From contig CAJYSA010000047.1 of the NCBI GenBank assembly GCA_913777325.1, forward strand, positions 62,001 through 126,000: 64,000 nucleotides of DNA, in the 5' to 3' direction. The notes beneath the pieces are model-generated. The model was not told the origin of the DNA. It was given only the letters and a program-made list of their open reading frames with translations, and ran no database searches. This stretch comes from an uncultured Sphingomonas sp. (GTDB lineage: Bacteria > Pseudomonadota > Alphaproteobacteria > Sphingomonadales > Sphingomonadaceae). The translations under genes and the position numbers were made by a program. The first letter of the stretch is position 1. Every line of letters begins with the position of its first letter. Below, in pieces: positions 11,051 to 37,362 of this stretch.

Positions 11051-11136
11051 GCCGCCACCACGCCGGAAATCTCAATCACGTTTCCGGATGACGTTTCGCC
11101 CGCGTAACGGGCATCGCCGTGTTCATGATGCTTCAT
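11047..11136 (-). CDS. Tiny 29-residue phage ORF between cro and next gene
   Basis: The ATG at 11136 overlaps the cro stop (ATGA) and the TGA at 11049-11047 overlaps the following GTG (GTGA). The peptide begins MKHHEHGDARYAG and is otherwise featureless. Its only support is this double 4-base overlap, which continues the pattern of the whole operon. It may serve as a coupling peptide. Confidence 0.4.
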   Translation of the reverse strand: MKHHEHGDARYAGETSSGNVIEISGVVAA

Positions 11137-11333
11137 GCCGCCCGCACCTCGACCAGCAGATCAGCCGAGCGGACATTACCGTTGGTTGCCTGCTCGATCT
11201 TGACCGCCAGCGGCAGCGAAGGCTGCCGCTGGCCATATGCGATCTTGCGGATCGTCGTGAGCGACTCACCAATGCGATCGGCAAAATCTTCGACCCGTTC
11301 GTTGGTGGCCTTGAGATGATCGAGCAGCTTCAT
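11133..11333 (-). CDS. Cro-like phage repressor
   Basis: A 66-residue helix-turn-helix protein (FADRIGESLTTIRKIAYG, then PLAVKIEQATNG) of the size of lambda Cro or YdaS-type proteins. It is divergent from the CI-like gene and is the first gene of the leftward operon, the classical place of cro. A candidate promoter reads leftward as TTGCGG at 11368-11363 and TAACTC at 11345-11340, which would start transcription at or next to the ATG and make the mRNA leaderless. The operator at 11342-11360 covers that minus-10. Confidence 0.8.
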   Translation of the reverse strand: MKLLDHLKATNERVEDFADRIGESLTTIRKIAYGQRQPSLPLAVKIEQATNGNVRSADLLVEVRAA

Positions 11334-11341
11334 AGCCGCGA

Positions 11342-11360
11342 GTTACCCGCACCGGGTAAC
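11342..11360. promoter_or_regulatory. Phage operator site 1 (cro/cI interval)
   Basis: The 19-base palindrome GTTACCCGCACCGGGTAAC has two perfect 8-base arms and a 3-base centre. It lies nine bases before the cro start codon and overlaps the candidate minus-10 of the leftward promoter. It is the best-matched of four similar sites around the repressor gene. Confidence 0.75.
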
Positions 11361-11376
11361 TGCCGCAAGGGAATTC

Positions 11377-11395
11377 GTTACCCCACGCGGGTTAT
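11377..11395. promoter_or_regulatory. Phage operator site 2 (cro/cI interval)
   Basis: GTTACCCCACGCGGGTTAT is an imperfect copy of the 19-base operator, centred 35 bases from site 1. It lies between the cro promoter and the cI start at 11430 and so could control cI itself. Confidence 0.65.
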
Positions 11396-11429
11396 CGACC
11401 TTTCCCACGCGTTGCCCAACAAGCCGAAC

Positions 11430-12005
11430 ATGGCCAACAACATCAAAAAGCTCCGCGAGCGCGCCGAGTTGACGCAGCAGCAACTGGCCGACCGGGTCGG
11501 AACGGGGAAATCGACGATCGTCAAGCTGGAGCGGGGGGAGCGCCCACTACACGACCGCTGGCTAACAAGAATTAGTGAAGCGCTTGACTGCCAACCGACC
11601 GATCTGCTTGATGATGATGTGGCAATTGTAGGGCGTATCGGAGCGGGCGGCTCTATTTCGTACGACGATGTAGGCTCCGACGACCGGATCGCTCGACCGC
11701 CAGAGACGTCAGGGCAGCTTGTAGGGCTTGAGGTGCAGGGTGATTCGATGCTGCCCAAGTTTGACCCCGGCGACATCGTCTTCATCAGCCGCAACCATGA
11801 CGGGGTCGATCCAGCGGATATTGGTGCGTATTGCGCTGTCAGGCTAACAACAGGCGAGACATATCTAAAACGCCTGACACGTAGCCCAGCCTCCAATCGG
11901 TTCACTCTCCGTAGCCTCAACGCGGCAGATATCGAGGATGTGGAGCTGGAATGGGCAACTCCCGTGCGCGCCATCACGCCCAGCGCCGCACGACGATTTC
12001 GGTAG
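11430..12005 (+). CDS. CI-like prophage repressor with LexA-type (S24) protease domain
   Basis: A 191-residue repressor that should hold the prophage silent and self-cleave during the SOS response. Residues 1-60 are an XRE helix-turn-helix (LTQQQLADRVGTGKSTIVKL). A likely cleavage bond is Ala72-Gly73, and the S24 domain has the catalytic Ser106 (QGDSM) and Lys147 (TYLKRL). The ATG at 11430 is chosen because the HTH begins there; no clear ribosome site precedes it. GC content is lower than in neighbouring genes. Operators flank the gene on both sides. Confidence 0.88.
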   Translation: MANNIKKLRERAELTQQQLADRVGTGKSTIVKLERGERPLHDRWLTRISEALDCQPTDLLDDDVAIVGRIGAGGSISYDDVGSDDRIARPPETSGQLVGLEVQGDSMLPKFDPGDIVFISRNHDGVDPADIGAYCAVRLTTGETYLKRLTRSPASNRFTLRSLNAADIEDVELEWATPVRAITPSAARRFR

Positions 12006-13401: not shown

Positions 13402-13733
13402 TGGACGTGTTACACGCCCCCGCCACGGGTATCTGTCCCGAGTGTCAGCAGCCGTTCGTGCTGGCGCAGGACACGCAGCTATTCTGCTGCGCCGCGCATC
13501 GCGTCGCGTGGAACAATCGCATGACGGTGCGCGGGCGCGTCGCCACGCCGCTGATGATCGCCGCCCGGCTGACGCGCAATGGCACGCGCGGCCATTCGAT
13601 CAGCGGCTATCGCGCCAGTAGCGACCTGGACACCCTCATTCGCCGATGGCGGCGGGAAGACGACGCCGAGGGCCGCATGTCGACCGTCATCTACGTTGAT
13701 CGCCGCTACGCGCTGGGATTTGATCCGCTATGA
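13398..13733 (+). CDS. Phage zinc-ribbon protein
   Basis: A 111-residue protein with an N-terminal CPEC...CCAAH set (residues about 14-37) that should bind one zinc ion, followed by a basic region (RRWRREDDAEGR). Small zinc-ribbon proteins in phage early operons often bind DNA or modify host transcription. Two start codons (13398 and 13401) are adjacent; the first makes an ATGA overlap with the upstream stop. Confidence 0.6.
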   Translation: MMDVLHAPATGICPECQQPFVLAQDTQLFCCAAHRVAWNNRMTVRGRVATPLMIAARLTRNGTRGHSISGYRASSDLDTLIRRWRREDDAEGRMSTVIYVDRRYALGFDPL

Positions 13734-14032
13734 AGATGGAGCGCATCACGCCGCCCGACGCGGCCGAGGTGCCACACCGCACGATCGTCGCCGCATGGCC
13801 GCGCCTGCTGTCGATCGACTTGGCCGCGCAATACCTGTCCTTGAGCGCGTCGACGATCCGTGCCGAGGGGCCGGAGCCGAAGCGCCACGGCCGACGCGTG
13901 CTGTACGACATCCGCGACCTCGATCGCTGGGCCGACCGCCTCGACGGTCAGCCACTGGACGAGCGCCAGGAAGAAGACGAAGCTGCCGCACTCGAGAAGC
14001 GGTGGATGGACAAGAGACGTGCCCGTGGCTGA
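13730..14032 (+). CDS. AlpA/excisionase-like HTH protein
   Basis: A 100-residue MerR-like winged helix of the helix_turn_helix_17 type: LLSIDLAAQYLSLSASTIRA, then the wing RHGRRVLYDIRDLDRWADRL. Proteins of this shape next to an integrase usually direct excision or regulate the integrase. The ATG at 13730 overlaps the previous stop, and the stop lies inside the beginning of the integrase gene. Confidence 0.75.
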   Translation: MKMERITPPDAAEVPHRTIVAAWPRLLSIDLAAQYLSLSASTIRAEGPEPKRHGRRVLYDIRDLDRWADRLDGQPLDERQEEDEAAALEKRWMDKRRARG

Positions 14033-15029
14033 CGTTCCGTACACCTATGTCATTCGCAAGCCGAACGGCCGCGAATACTGGCGCTTCCGGCGCGGCAAGC
14101 TGCACACTGCGCTACCGGGCAAACCCGGCGAGGTCGCATTCCAGAAGGAATATGCGCGGCTACTTGAACTCTCGCAGGCTCCCGAACCAAAGGCCGCCGC
14201 CGAGGGCACCTTCGCTGCGCTGATCGCAGCGTACCGGGTCAGCGCCGAGTTCAAGGCGTTGCGACCGTCAACGCAGACCGATTACGAGAACACGCTCGAC
14301 TTGCTGAAAGACGAGCTGGGCGACGCGCCCTATCGCCTCATCACACAGGCGATGGTGAAGGCGATCCGCGACGACCTCGCCGCCACGCCGCGCAAGGCGC
14401 ACAAGGTCAAGCAGATGGTCAGCCGCCTGTATAGCTGGGCAGCCGAAGAGAATCTGGTAAGAGAGGGGCACAACCCCGCCGCGAAGATCAAGCGGCTCAA
14501 GGTTCGCGCCAAGACCATCACCCCTTGGTCCGACAGTGAGATCGCGCTGTTCCTCGCCCATGCCCCGGCCCACCTCAAGATGGCGGTGACGCTGATGCTG
14601 TTCACCGGCCAGCGCGTCGAGGACGTCGCCTCGATGGAGTGGACCCAATATCAAGGCAGCTTCGTCCGCGTCCGCCAGTCGAAGACCGATGAAATGCTGG
14701 AGGTGGCCGTTCACCCGCGCTTGGCCGCCGTGCTAGACCCGGTGAAAATTCGACGCGGCCGCATCTGCAAATCAGCGAAGGGGCGCCCCTACACCGCCAA
14801 CGCGCTTCGCAAGGCTATCAGCGACCAATGCGCCGCGATCGACGGAATGCCTGCGCGATCGTCGCACGGGCTGCGCTACGCTGCGGCCGGAATGTTGGAG
14901 GAAGCCGGGTGCACGGTCGGCGAGATCACGTCCGTGATCGGACACCGCACCTACCAGATGGCGATGAAATACCTCACCGCCCGCCGAAACAGCGCCGCCG
15001 CAATGGCGCGGTTAGAACGGCAGGCATGA
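14025..15029 (+). CDS. int: Prophage tyrosine recombinase (integrase)
   Basis: A 334-residue site-specific recombinase that integrates and excises the prophage. An AP2-like arm-binding N-terminus (residues 1-60) and a core-binding domain (63-160) precede the catalytic domain. All active-site residues are present: Arg197 (FTGQRVED), Lys220, His281 and Arg284 (HGLRYA), His307 (GHRTY) and the nucleophile Tyr316 (MKYLTAR). GTG at 14025 is preferred because AAGAG lies nine bases before it; GTG at 14019 is the alternative. The start overlaps the excisionase-like gene. Confidence 0.9.
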   Translation: MADVPYTYVIRKPNGREYWRFRRGKLHTALPGKPGEVAFQKEYARLLELSQAPEPKAAAEGTFAALIAAYRVSAEFKALRPSTQTDYENTLDLLKDELGDAPYRLITQAMVKAIRDDLAATPRKAHKVKQMVSRLYSWAAEENLVREGHNPAAKIKRLKVRAKTITPWSDSEIALFLAHAPAHLKMAVTLMLFTGQRVEDVASMEWTQYQGSFVRVRQSKTDEMLEVAVHPRLAAVLDPVKIRRGRICKSAKGRPYTANALRKAISDQCAAIDGMPARSSHGLRYAAAGMLEEAGCTVGEITSVIGHRTYQMAMKYLTARRNSAAAMARLERQA

Positions 15030-15036
15030 AGCCGAA

Positions 15037-15693
15037 CTACCAAAAGTGATGGAAAGGAGCCTCGACGTCCCAACTCTCGATCTTGAACATGCCATTGGCG
15101 GGTGGGTTTTTCACAGTTCTTGCAGCGGCAATAACGTGAGCGACTTCAAAGCCCGCACCTCGTATCGCGCGAGCACATGCCACGGCATGCCCTCCACCCG
15201 TTATCACATCATCAACCAACACCACGGGCCGCTTCGGAAGGCCGCTGCCGATCTTCAAATTCCCGACAAGAACGTCAGGATCTCGGGGACCACCATTACG
15301 CGCCTTCGGCCATTCCTCAATCCAATGAAGAGCGTCAACCGCCCCGAACTGCCGCGCATGAACTACGATCGCCTCCGCCAGCGCGCGCCCCTTCGTATCT
15401 GAGCCAACCCGCACACAATTTGACGAAGGAATTGGAACTAGCGTGGCGCCTTCCGGATAGATGCCGATTAAGACGGACGCGGCCCAGCGGCCCCAGACAT
15501 CGAACGCGTTGTTGGCAAGAGCGTTCGAAATTTTAATCGTACCCCCGGAAGGGCGTGGCAGCCAAGCGTGCCCATTCGCCTGCTCGCCCTTAAGGATCTG
15601 AATGAATTTATGCGCGACGTGCTCCGGATCGCGCCATTTATGCTCGCCCTCGTAGCTGGCATACCCACCGAATACATGCGCAGTCAACGTCAT
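15037..15693 (-). CDS. ComF-like phosphoribosyltransferase in a DprA pair
   Basis: A 218-residue type I phosphoribosyltransferase. The PRPP-binding loop is VVLVDDVITGGG at residues 157-168, and an upstream VPIPS (86-90) with Arg103 matches ComF-type enzymes. The N-terminal 80 residues (an aromatic-rich HVFGGYASYEGEHKW stretch) replace the zinc ribbon of ComF and match nothing I know. Its ATG overlaps the stop of the DprA-like gene (ATGA), so both proteins are made together. GC content is lower than in the flanks, a sign of transfer. It ends only seven bases from the integrase stop, tail to tail. Substrate is unknown; a nucleobase or nucleotide is expected from the family. Confidence 0.8.
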   Translation of the reverse strand: MTLTAHVFGGYASYEGEHKWRDPEHVAHKFIQILKGEQANGHAWLPRPSGGTIKISNALANNAFDVWGRWAASVLIGIYPEGATLVPIPSSNCVRVGSDTKGRALAEAIVVHARQFGAVDALHWIEEWPKARNGGPRDPDVLVGNLKIGSGLPKRPVVLVDDVITGGGHAVACARAIRGAGFEVAHVIAAARTVKNPPANGMFKIESWDVEAPFHHFW

Positions 15694-16445
15694 GACGGAT
15701 AGATCTCGTCTAGCAACGACTGGGTTGATTCAAGTATCAACGTACGGGGTTGCCCGACAAATTTTTCCGGCCAAGTCAGATCCTCGTTTTCCACAACACT
15801 CTTGGCTATAACTAGCCACCTACCAAGCCGTTGACATTCTGCGGCTTGGTGAAGGGTGCCGGATGTGTCTGACGCCTCGATGACCACGCTTGCATCGGAC
15901 AGCGCCGCCATAGTTCTATTTCTTGCCGGGAAGTTCGACGGGAAAACCCTCGTGCCTGGATGAAATTGCGATATGAGCAGGTGATCACGATAGATCGCTT
16001 CTTGCAGCGCCTTGTTCTTCGCCGGGTAGGCTTGATCGAGCGGCGTTCCAATAACTGCTACGACCGATCCTCCTGCTTCGATTGCGCCGGTCAAAGCTTC
16101 GGTGTCGATACCCTCAGCAAGGCCCGACACGACCACGACCCCGGCGGCTGCGAGCTGCCGACCCAGTTGTCGCGCACGACGGCGCCCTAGGTCACTAGCT
16201 TTGCGCGCACCAATGACGGCTATGCAGCGATTTGACAGCAGGGAGATGTCGCCCGCGCAGAACAGGTTCGCAGCCCCGCTCAGAAAATCCATCTGCTTTG
16301 GCGCGAGCGTATTCCGGCCGCCGATCCCCAGCAAGTCGCTGATCGAACGTTGCTCCACCGATTCTGGCGGCACGTACTTTGGGCCGCGCGATCCGCCAAC
16401 GGCGGGCGCACGGCGACGCCGATGTCCCTCGTTGTCAACCGTCAT
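15690..16445 (-). CDS. DprA-like SLOG protein paired with a phosphoribosyltransferase
   Basis: A 251-residue Rossmann-fold protein of the DprA/Smf branch of the SLOG superfamily. Visible family motifs are IGAR (78-81), SGLAEGID (107-114), FPARNR (172-177), Glu190 and SGT (195-197). It lacks both the N-terminal SAM-like domain and the C-terminal winged helix of genuine DprA, and the usual Ser-Glu of the LLSE motif is Ser-Gln here (LISQ, 157-160). The first 60 residues are basic and disordered-looking. The ATG at 16445 follows GAGGG at a good distance; reading upstream of it is not credible. It is therefore unlikely to be the chromosomal transformation protein and is better seen as a nucleotide-sensing or DNA-sensing half of a two-gene accessory system. 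Confidence 0.8.
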   Translation of the reverse strand: MTVDNEGHRRRRAPAVGGSRGPKYVPPESVEQRSISDLLGIGGRNTLAPKQMDFLSGAANLFCAGDISLLSNRCIAVIGARKASDLGRRRARQLGRQLAAAGVVVVSGLAEGIDTEALTGAIEAGGSVVAVIGTPLDQAYPAKNKALQEAIYRDHLLISQFHPGTRVFPSNFPARNRTMAALSDASVVIEASDTSGTLHQAAECQRLGRWLVIAKSVVENEDLTWPEKFVGQPRTLILESTQSLLDEIYPS

Positions 16446-16667: not shown

Positions 16668-16741
16668 GGCGCGATGGCGGAGTGGTGACGCAGAGGACTG
16701 CAAATCCTTGCACCCGGGTTCGATTCCCGGTCGCGCCTCCA
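16668..16741 (+). tRNA. tRNA-Cys (anticodon GCA)
   Basis: The 74-base gene folds into a full cloverleaf. The 7-bp acceptor stem is GGCGCGA with TCGCGCC, the anticodon loop is CTGCAAA (GCA), and the T arm is CCGGG TTCGATT CCCGG. The discriminator base is U, which cysteinyl-tRNA synthetase requires, and CCA is encoded at 16739-16741. It is the last feature before clearly chromosomal genes on the right of the prophage, so it marks the prophage boundary region. Confidence 0.95.
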
Positions 16742-36109: not shown

Positions 36110-37362
36110 CGGACCACTCCGGTAAGCGCTCCCACAAACCGCTCGAACAGATAGAAACTATCCTGCGGCCCCGGGCTCGCCTCGGGGTGATACTGCACCG
36201 AGAACGCCGGGCGGTCGGTCAGTTCCAGCCCCGCGTTCGACCCGTCGAACAGCGACACATGCGTCTCGCGCGCGTTCGCGGGCAGCGAGTCGCGCTCGAC
36301 CGCGAAGCCGTGGTTCATGCTGGTGATCTCGACCGCGCCGTCCTGCACCCGTTTCACCGGGTGGTTCGCGCCGCGATGGCCCTGAAACATCTTGGTGGTG
36401 CGCGCGCCGACCGCGAGCGCCAGCAATTGGTGACCCAGGCAGATGCCGAACAGCGGCTTGCCCGTCTCCAGCAACTGGCGGATCACCGGCACGGCGTAGT
36501 CGCCGGTCGCGGCGGGGTCGCCGGGGCCGTTCGACAGGAAGATGCCGTCCGGGTTCAGCGCCATGATCTCGTCATAGGTCGCACTGGCGGGCACCACCGA
36601 CACCTTCGCCCCGGCCTGGACCAGATTGCGGAAGATGTTGAACTTGCTGCCATAATCGATCGCGACGACGTGTGGGCGGTTCTGCGGGGCACGTGCTTCG
36701 ACAGGCTCAGCACGAACGCCGTTTTCTTCACCCGCTCGTCCTGAGCTTGTCGAAGGACGTGTGTCGGACGCTTCGTCATAGCCGAACCCCAGCCGCCAGA
36801 TGCCGCCGGCCCAGGTGCCGTGCGTCTCACGCGTGACGTCCTTGGCGAGGTCCATGCCCTCCAGCCCCGGCCAGCCGCGCGCCATCTTGAGCAGCGCGTC
36901 GAGGTCGAAGTCGCCAGTCGGCGAATGCGCGACGACGCCGTTCGGCGCGCCGCCCGAACGGATGCGCCGCGTCAGCGCGCGGGTGTCGATCCCGGCGAGG
37001 CCGATGCGCGTGTGGCGCTTCATCCAGCCGTCGAGGTTCTCCATCGCGCGGAAGTTCGACGGCGCGGTCGGATCCTCGCGGACGATCATGCCCAAAGCGT
37101 GCGGATTGTCCGCCTCCACGTCGTCCGGGTTCGCCCCGACGTTGCCGATGTGCGGGAAGGTGAAGGTGATGATCTGCCCCGCGAACGACGGGTCGGTCAT
37201 GATCTCCTGATAGCCCGTCATCGCGGTGTGGAAGCAGACTTCCCCTACGGCAGCGCCCTCCGCGCCGAAACCTCGGCCCCACGCGACCTCGCCATTGGCC
37301 AGGACGAGAACGCCGGTGGCGCCTTCGGGCATGGGGGCGTGCGGAAACTCAGGCTCGGCCAT
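36106..37362 (-). CDS. carA: Carbamoyl-phosphate synthase small subunit (glutaminase)
   Basis: A 418-residue subunit that hydrolyses glutamine and hands ammonia to CarB. The N-terminal interaction domain ends near residue 190, and the class I glutamine amidotransferase domain carries the nucleophile in GICLGHQ and the HPEASPGP His-Glu pair. About 24 residues (RPSTSSGRAGEENGVRAEPV and following) between residues 200 and 224 are encoded by a dispersed palindromic repeat and lie in the linker between domains, so the enzyme can still work. The frame is intact. Length is 20-30 residues over the usual size, which equals the insertion. Confidence 0.95.
   Translation of the reverse strand: MAEPEFPHAPMPEGATGVLVLANGEVAWGRGFGAEGAAVGEVCFHTAMTGYQEIMTDPSFAGQIITFTFPHIGNVGANPDDVEADNPHALGMIVREDPTAPSNFRAMENLDGWMKRHTRIGLAGIDTRALTRRIRSGGAPNGVVAHSPTGDFDLDALLKMARGWPGLEGMDLAKDVTRETHGTWAGGIWRLGFGYDEASDTRPSTSSGRAGEENGVRAEPVEARAPQNRPHVVAIDYGSKFNIFRNLVQAGAKVSVVPASATYDEIMALNPDGIFLSNGPGDPAATGDYAVPVIRQLLETGKPLFGICLGHQLLALAVGARTTKMFQGHRGANHPVKRVQDGAVEITSMNHGFAVERDSLPANARETHVSLFDGSNAGLELTDRPAFSVQYHPEASPGPQDSFYLFERFVGALTGVVR
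36690..36762. repeat. REP-like palindrome inserted in frame in carA
   Basis: Inverted arms at about 36690-36718 (containing CTTCGACAGGCTCAGCACG) and 36734-36762 (containing CGTCCTGAGCTTGTCGAAG) match the element at 26102-26184. The arms differ from each other at a few positions. The length is a multiple of three within the coding frame, and the translated peptide has the characteristic VRAEPVEA and RPSTSSG signatures of such repeats. Confidence 0.8.

What the first reader, a model, noticed from the sequence alone, without database searches (positions are those of the whole stretch)
15037..16445. DprA-like SLOG protein coupled to a ComF-like phosphoribosyltransferase: candidate defence or nucleotide-signalling module
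Seen: two coupled genes (ATGA overlap) of low GC between the integrase and the prophage edge, on the strand opposite to integrase. One keeps only the Rossmann core of DprA (no SAM or winged-helix domain, LISQ in place of the usual LISE), the other has a PRPP loop and a novel 80-residue N-terminus. Known: SLOG proteins bind nucleotides or DNA, and phosphoribosyltransferases make or break nucleotides. From memory, comparative genomics has proposed nucleotide-centred conflict systems built from SLOG proteins and nucleotide enzymes. The integrase-proximal position is a common prophage cargo slot for anti-phage genes. Inference: the pair may sense or make a nucleotide signal, or deplete PRPP or nucleotides, on infection.
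Basis: partly seen in the sequence, partly recalled or inferred. Interest (0 to 1): 0.78.

Follow-up and report, generated by a model that had tools for sequence, protein, structure and literature searches.

The report
Compact ShosTA-type phage-defence pair in prophage
Two overlapping genes at the edge of a bacterial prophage are a short, little-studied form of a known DprA-like/phosphoribosyltransferase phage-defence pair, sitting in a slot where related prophages carry other defence genes.

Summary
The pair is a ShosTA-type module: a DprA-like protein (ShosA, 15690-16445 -) and a phosphoribosyltransferase (ShosT, 15037-15693 -). It lies in a 42.3-kb prophage whose right end is a 40-bp repeat of the tRNA-Cys 5' half. 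LISQ, the missing winged helix and the PRTase N-terminus recur in relatives. Of 113 non-redundant ShosA loci, 99 have a ShosT-like gene abutting downstream. Relatives with 94% and 72% identical integrases carry bSEFIR and PD-T4-10_B genes in the same slot and orientation, so the defence-cargo inference is well supported. What is not standard: ShosT of a P2-like E. coli phage and of a Pseudomonas phage combines a HAD-like part with the PRTase, whereas this one is PRTase only; its ShosA belongs to an N-terminally shortened clade (SG[T/S]LHQ...EC). I file it as a new, untested compact variant of a known kind. Likely action: toxin-antitoxin-like abortive defence in which the PRTase disturbs nucleotides or DNA once the DprA-like partner registers infection; inferred, not shown.

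The parts
15690..16445 (-). ShosA-type DprA-like protein, 251 aa, compact clade (short N-terminus, SLOG/Rossmann core, no winged helix)
   Evidence: PADLOC ShosA PDLC03961 5.8e-65; PF02481 3.6e-51; AlphaFold2 pLDDT 90; DprA structures and, at rank 14, ShosA 8zva among PDB fold matches
15037..15693 (-). ShosT-type phosphoribosyltransferase, 218 aa, PRTase only; PRPP loop VDDVITGGGH around D161/D162
   Evidence: PADLOC ShosT PDLC03962 2.1e-9, residues 54-198; AlphaFold2 pLDDT 94; Foldseek ranks ComF 7p0h first and ShosT with PRPP-Mg 8zvc second
15690..15693 (-). ATGA overlap of the two reading frames (translational coupling likely, inference)
   Evidence: sequence; the same overlap in 29 of 95 relatives, with start codons chosen there for closeness to the ShosA end
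14019..15029 (+). tyrosine integrase of the prophage (GTG start chosen to match its relative in L003)
   Evidence: PF00589 5.5e-13, phrog_1 4.8e-41, both on the longer ORF 13860-15029
13730..14032 (+). excisionase/HTH-like protein
   Evidence: phrog_66 5.8e-6
11406..12005 (+). CI-like phage repressor (part of ORF 11088-12005)
   Evidence: phrog_4 2.4e-30
16668..16707 (+). right attachment core: 40 bp identical to the left end at contig 36404-36443 (outside the window)
   Evidence: one search finds an internal 25-mer at exactly these two places in this genome
16668..16741 (+). tRNA-Cys(GCA), intact; prophage inserted on its 5' side
   Evidence: ARAGORN

Best explanation
The pair is a compact, PRTase-only variant of the ShosTA phage-defence module, carried by a temperate phage in an exchangeable cargo slot between integrase and attR. 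Shown here: identity of both proteins, conserved coupling, purifying selection, the prophage ends, other defence-type genes in the same slot of two relatives. Inferred: ShosA (DprA core, DNA-binding by homology) keeps ShosT in check in the lysogen; when a competing phage alters DNA or transcription, the restraint fails or is reversed, and ShosT uses PRPP through D161/D162 to disturb the nucleotide pool or damage DNA, so that the infected cell stops or dies before the phage spreads. The trigger and the substrate are not known.
For: ShosA/ShosT model matches. 99 of 113 non-redundant ShosA loci paired; 3 of the other 14 end within 400 b of the contig end. Shared ShosA features ISQ, SG[T/S]LxQ and WP, unlike the genome's own DprA. 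The slot holds bSEFIR (integrase 94%) and PD-T4-10_B (integrase 72%) in relatives. D161, D162, G167 in 62 of 62 aligned rows. dN/dS 0.02-0.06. DprA+PRTase protects E. coli from T7 and lambda (PMC9122126, passages). ShosTA action through purine pools and DNA damage, as a review sums up Pu et al. 2025 (PMC12593503, passage; the original is not held). In RqlHI, PRTase-dependent genotoxicity is restrained by RqlI (PMC4670107, passages), which PMC9122126 counts among DprA-homologue antitoxins.
Against: ShosT of P2-like phage P24C9 is 424 aa with a weak HAD match plus a weak PRTase match, and a Pseudomonas phage record calls its ShosT a HAD/PRTase protein; the window ShosT has no HAD part, and its family profile aligns to the P24C9 protein only around the PRPP loop. 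So the published biochemistry may not transfer. [quoted passage not shown] The window ShosT match is modest and partial (35.6 bits); a genome search with that model at 1e-8 does not ring in the window's own genome. Close relatives are rare: in 397 family genomes only the own one, G372 and G120 match the window ShosT below 1e-10. No promoter-like site was found upstream. No activity was tested.
Confidence: 0.68

Rival explanations
1. Sensor-activator model: the DprA-like protein is not an antitoxin but a DNA-bound sensor that recruits and switches on the PRTase when phage DNA appears; the PRTase is harmless alone.
For: Rousset et al. [quoted passage not shown] The window ShosT has no recognised extra domain to bring it to DNA.
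Against: Antitoxin roles of DprA homologues are reported for shosTA, syrTA and rqlHI (passage). Not decidable by sequence.
Confidence: 0.25
2. Addiction, superinfection-exclusion or lysogeny-control module of the prophage rather than broad phage defence.
For: Position at the very end of the prophage next to int/xis; DNA similarity to the L003 prophage covers int, part of xis and ShosTA, with only two short further pieces in the 7.4 kb held.
Against: The slot is exchangeable: bSEFIR and PD-T4-10_B genes occupy it in relatives. Related pairs occur on many other contigs, and DprA-like matches in 193 plasmid records (not checked for a partner there; in the one plasmid region I opened, no PRTase was annotated beside the DprA-like gene).
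Confidence: 0.1
3. DNA-processing or competence helper genes (DprA/ComF-like housekeeping pair) picked up by a prophage.
For: DprA core and PRTase fold, with DprA and ComF as first fold matches.
Against: The genome has a separate DprA (L002) lacking the ShosA signatures. comF and dprA models are below their cut-offs. In one search, none of the 49 PRTase loci with the loop ending in T had a DprA-like signature in the held flank, whereas all 6 ending in H did.
Confidence: 0.04

Closest known systems
ShosTA of PADLOC (models PDLC03961/PDLC03962)
   Same: DprA-like plus PRTase, adjacent genes; both models match. Other short pairs match them strongly: L034, from the window's class (ShosA 1.3e-96, ShosT 3.9e-48), and Burkholderia phage Mana (3.3e-97, 1.2e-41)
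   Different: Window ShosA is matched only from model position 101 on; ShosT only over positions 74-216 with 35.6 bits
ShosTA of P2-like E. coli phages (L206, P24C9; models PDLC02997/PDLC03012) and the ShosTA structures 8zva-8zvd, 9vzo
   Same: DprA-like core of P24C9 aligns over 176 columns, probability 99.5%; PRTase with a DD motif; fold matches to 8zva and 8zvc
   Different: P24C9 ShosT is 424 aa with a HAD-like N-terminal part, its ShosA 349 aa; the PRTases align only around the PRPP loop. I did not compare P24C9 with the PDB chains
RqlHI / PsyrTA
   Same: PRTase-bearing toxin restrained by a partner counted among DprA homologues (passages); PsyrA model matches ShosA at 5.1e-34
   Different: In RqlH the PRTase is the C-terminal domain of a RecQ-like helicase; the window PRTase stands alone
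DprA and ComF of natural transformation
   Same: Folds
   Different: No winged helix, ISQ/SGTLHQ signatures, H instead of T at the end of the PRPP loop, prophage context

Membership tests
ShosTA (as modelled by PADLOC) | DprA-like protein matching a ShosA model | tested here: met
   PDLC03961 5.8e-65
ShosTA (as modelled by PADLOC) | PRTase matching a ShosT model | tested here: met
   PDLC03962 2.1e-9, partial; not reached at 1e-8 in the genome search
ShosTA (as modelled by PADLOC) | two genes adjacent on one strand | tested here: met
   ATGA overlap; 99 of 113 relatives
ShosTA (HAD-PRTase form of E. coli and Pseudomonas phages) | HAD-like domain in ShosT | tested here: not met
   218 aa, only PRTase matches, against HAD plus PRTase in P24C9 and the annotation of PfAC02a
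ShosTA | protection against phages | not testable with these tools
   needs plaque assays
ShosTA | ShosT toxic, ShosA relieves it | not testable with these tools
   needs expression
PsyrTA / RqlHI | RecQ-like helicase domain in the toxin | tested here: not met
   no helicase match
DprA (natural transformation) | dprA model above its curated cut-off | tested here: not met
   TIGR00732 144.6 bits against 191.15
ComF | comF model above its curated cut-off | tested here: not met
   TIGR00201 13.4 bits against 233.55

The most novel reading that the evidence does not exclude
The compact clade is a functionally distinct, minimal defence unit: a free-standing PRTase that needs no HAD or helicase domain, guided to DNA by a DprA core, acting on nucleobases at or near DNA; and it moves not only inside phages but as a 1.8-kb integrase-less cassette between a duplicated 5' tRNA fragment and the intact tRNA (seen in two genera), mobilised by integrases of other elements.
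Probability: 0.18. Interest if true: 0.68.

Novelty: new variant of a known kind. Interest (0 to 1): 0.42.

Why it matters
The ShosTA form that has structures and biochemistry appears to be the one with a HAD-like part fused to the PRTase (inference). A natural form with the PRTase alone makes it directly testable which half of the toxin does the damage and whether the DprA-like partner is an antitoxin or an activator. The integrase-attR slot, holding ShosTA, bSEFIR or PD-T4-10_B genes in relatives of one integrase, is a place to look for further defence genes in Sphingomonas-type prophages.

Tried and rejected
Rejected: competence/housekeeping pair. Rejected: LISQ, absence of a winged helix and the PRTase N-terminus as marks of novelty, because relatives share them. 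An early idea that H at the end of the PRPP loop is a strict ShosT hallmark was weakened: H and T separated the loci seen, but among 95 ShosT-type proteins the residue is H 56, S 13, T 8, Q 5, N 1, M 1, motif not found 11.

Led nowhere: the window PRTase found nothing in plasmid and phage records and nothing in the first genome-contig scan; a related short ShosT (L086) found 5 phage records; ShosA found 33 phage records, none covering 80% of it in one place; the sigma-70-like promoter scan found none; the BFVD fold search gave only generic PRTases and unrelated proteins; the tRNA 3' end was the wrong att guess, the 5' half was right; the att pattern was not found in the three IMG/VR records asked, which end inside or near the cargo genes; Pu et al. 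2025 could not be read, so its content is second-hand.

Rows dropped: one search dropped 12 of 125 loci as repeats of the same protein end. L125 (Planctomycetota MAG, 772 aa, SGTLHQAWEA, no ShosT-like neighbour) has the LHQ signature but was kept out of the compact set by length; it lacks the Cys. The tree used 60 of 99 rows: 18 compact rows (chosen by the LHQ signature; L071 and L117, which had no sense-strand partner, added by hand), every second other ShosA row (40) and 2 DprA rows. Alignment A5 holds 62 ShosT rows: window, L003 and 60 of the 95 collected; the 35 left out include short or split ones and every row whose loop ends in T, so conservation in A5 is that of the chosen rows. A PADLOC scan of slot neighbours covered 10 ORFs from 5 integrase relatives (one of 10 matched: mad2, partial, L203) and one ORF each of L193 and L195; L197, L199, L200 and L201 were not scanned.

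Full report
What was checked. A tRNA-Cys follows at 16668-16741. The host is probably a Sphingomonas: the chromosome beyond the tRNA resembles that of S. beigongshangi L114 (80.6% over 737 columns); this is inference.

What it is. PADLOC assigns the upstream gene to ShosA (PDLC03961, 5.8e-65; also PsyrA 5.1e-34) and the downstream gene to ShosT (PDLC03962, 2.1e-9, residues 54-198). Pfam sees DNA_processg_A in the first (3.6e-51) and only a sub-threshold PRTase in the second; NCBIfam's dprA and comF models stay below their cut-offs. AlphaFold2 models are confident (ShosA pLDDT 90; ShosT pLDDT 94). Foldseek places ShosA with DprA structures and ShosA 8zva (rank 14), and ShosT with ComF 7p0h (rank 1) and ShosT with PRPP-Mg 8zvc (rank 2), at modest TM-scores (0.44 and 0.46 by query length; 0.54 for ShosT 8zvd, rank 42).

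The pair is conserved, but close relatives are rare. A profile of four ShosA proteins found 45 loci in IMG/VR contigs and 84 in GTDB contigs, of which 80 were kept. After dropping 12 repeats, 99 of 113 ShosA loci have a ShosT-like ORF starting within 150 b of, or overlapping, the ShosA end; 3 of the other 14 end within 400 b of the contig end. In L097 a ShosT-like ORF (191 bits) lies tail-to-tail on the other strand, and in L117 a weaker one (33 bits); in L078 one (42 bits) lies upstream. The search patterns came from ShosA-type motifs, so this counts ShosA-like proteins, not all DprA. In 397 family genomes, 197 match the window ShosT at 1e-3, but only the own genome, G372 and G120 below 1e-10; the 30 loci that one search returned include those three, and the other 27, read, have the loop of ordinary PRTases. 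Between the window and L003, ShosA is 92% and ShosT 86% identical, with strong third-position bias.

Family signatures. In 28 aligned ShosA rows (17 compact, 11 other) Q of ISQ is in 14 of 17 and 11 of 11, SG[T/S]LxQ in 17 and 11, WP in 17 and 11; the genome's own DprA has IAE and SGSLITA. The compact rows have H199, E203 and C204 in 17 of 17 against 0 of 11 others, a shorter N-terminus, and lack an insert after ISQ. Both groups end 53-68 residues after SG[T/S]L (one compact-type value, 66, is L125), so no winged helix follows in either. A quick tree of 60 rows puts the 18 compact rows on one side of a branch (SH-aLRT 99); the ten with a named host are Pseudomonadota (Sphingomonadaceae, Erythrobacteraceae, Paracoccaceae, Beijerinckiaceae, Robiginitomaculaceae, Vineibacter) (that these are Alphaproteobacteria is general knowledge). 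This was a short search without bootstrap, and the Planctomycetota protein L125, which has LHQ but not the Cys, was left out.

In ShosT, D161, D162 and G167 are in 62 of 62 aligned rows, K35 in 60, P89 in 61, S91 in 60. The loop after the two Asp ends in His in the window. In one search, covering 60 loci, the motif was found in 55: 49 end in T, none with a DprA-like signature in the held flank (about 1.5 kb), and 6 in H, all six with one; L006, missed by the pattern, is also H and paired. The wider set shows a tendency only: H 56, S 13, T 8, Q 5, N 1, M 1, none found 11, of 95.

How it differs from the studied form. ShosT of P2-like phage P24C9 is 424 aa, matches PADLOC's long ShosT model (3.4e-294) and has a weak HAD match (2.9e-4) before a weak PRTase match (1.1e-4), both under Pfam's cut-offs; ShosT of Pseudomonas phage PfAC02a is annotated as HAD/PRTase. 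The short-family profile aligns to the P24C9 protein only around the PRPP loop, though PADLOC's 237-position model matches it over residues 2-384. PDB chains 8zvc and 8zvd, titled ShosT, and 8zvb, titled for the ShosTA system, have 424, 412 and 393 residues. The window ShosT is PRTase only. I did not establish which protein Rousset et al. tested; that it is the long form is likely from its P2 location but is inference.

Context. An exact 40-bp repeat at contig 36404 and window 16668-16707 bounds a 42.3-kb prophage with portal, head, tape-measure, endolysin, primase and small-terminase matches, repressor, excisionase and integrase. I did not test whether it is complete or active. It sits on the 5' side of the tRNA gene; ShosA starts 222 b from the core. 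Similarity to the L003 prophage covers int, part of xis and ShosTA (82% over 2.7 kb) and two short pieces in the 7.4 kb held.

The slot. Nine IMG/VR relatives of the integrase were found (one is a 37-residue match), and three in same-genus genomes among 150 relatives at 1e-60. In L194 (the L003 prophage, integrase 92%) the slot holds ShosTA; in L193 (94%) a 482-aa ORF matching bSEFIR (8.8e-89) has its 3' end 8 b after the end of the integrase match; in L195 (72%) a 348-aa ORF matching PD-T4-10_B (3.5e-22) has its 3' end 27 b after it. Both run on the opposite strand, as in the window, and reach the contig end, so the A gene of PD-T4-10 was not seen. In L196, L198-L200 and L203-L205 no ShosTA was found; 10 neighbouring ORFs of five of these gave one partial PADLOC match. 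That bSEFIR and PD-T4-10 are experimentally validated is recalled, not looked up.

Other homes of the compact pair. ARAGORN on 18 compact-type loci (some of them the same place twice) found a tRNA within 0.5 kb of the pair in L116, L117, L119 and L123, as in the window; I ran no control for this. In L114 (Sphingomonas beigongshangi) the tRNA-Cys 5' part is duplicated 9.5 kb away with integrase and ShosTA between. In L116 (Pontixanthobacter) and L123 (Novosphingobium taihuense) a 22-24-nt 5' piece of tRNA-Gln is repeated 1.84 kb before the intact tRNA, and ShosA and ShosT are the only ORFs of 130 aa or more listed between. Of 116 family genomes with that 22-mer (347 searched), one has it twice: G120, whose coordinates fit the L116 locus. 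L116 has a tyrosine integrase on the other side of the tRNA. In L117 and L119 no tRNA piece of 14 nt or more was repeated in the locus.

Mechanism. By homology, ShosA binds DNA and ShosT uses PRPP. PMC9122126 (passages) reports protection against T7 and lambda by a DprA+PRTase pair and suggests DNA sensing. A review (PMC12593503, passages) says of Pu et al. 2025 that ShosT is a PRTase and pyrophosphatase that disturbs purine metabolism and leads to DNA duplications, filamentation and death, that ShosA binds DNA and counteracts it, and that T7 Gp0.7 is a trigger. PMC4670107 (passages) shows PRTase-dependent genotoxicity of RqlH restrained by RqlI, the PRTase domain alone not being sufficient. 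PMC11878078 (passages) finds ShosTA of Pf phage PfAC02a over-represented in phage-resistant isolates, but inseparable from Kiwa in the same phage. For the window pair the toxin-antitoxin-like abortive model is my best reading; a sensor-activator model is the main rival.

In print? Paper searches (listings, and passages of the papers named here) showed no description of a PRTase-only compact ShosTA or of this slot. PMC13092281 (passages) lists a PRTase among validated E. coli systems in a figure legend; I could not see which protein it is. Most subscription papers are not held, so this is weak evidence. PADLOC's 237-position ShosT model shows that short ShosT proteins are already modelled.

Noticed in passing
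L116:5732-7642 and L123:5788-7692: A 1.84-kb unit holding only ShosA and ShosT lies between a 22-24-nt duplicate of the tRNA-Gln 5' end and the intact tRNA-Gln in two genera, beside similar chromosomal DNA; no integrase inside. Trans-mobilised cassette or relic is open.
   Followed up: partly
L114:1968-11529: A 9.5-kb element at tRNA-Cys (5' part duplicated) with integrase and ShosTA in Sphingomonas beigongshangi; satellite or small island.
   Followed up: partly
L193:5001-6449 and L195:5020-6066: bSEFIR and PD-T4-10_B matches directly after relatives of the window's integrase, opposite strand: an exchangeable defence slot.
   Followed up: yes
L097:5590-7226 and L117:5917-7237: ShosA and a ShosT-like ORF (weak in L117) in convergent, tail-to-tail orientation instead of an operon.
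   Followed up: no
L139:5812-9702: A Rhizobium locus with a short ShosTA pair and, facing it, a second DprA-like gene next to a 414-aa protein with a PRTase-like DDILTEG motif; possibly both forms side by side.
   Followed up: no
G335:C8:627888-687840: A same-genus genome has three copies of the tRNA-Cys 5' 25-mer, two of them 163 b apart and the third 60 kb away; probably another element at this site.
   Followed up: no
L084 and L109: ShosT (L084) or ShosA (L109) split into two ORFs in viral contigs; decayed copies or sequence errors.
   Followed up: no
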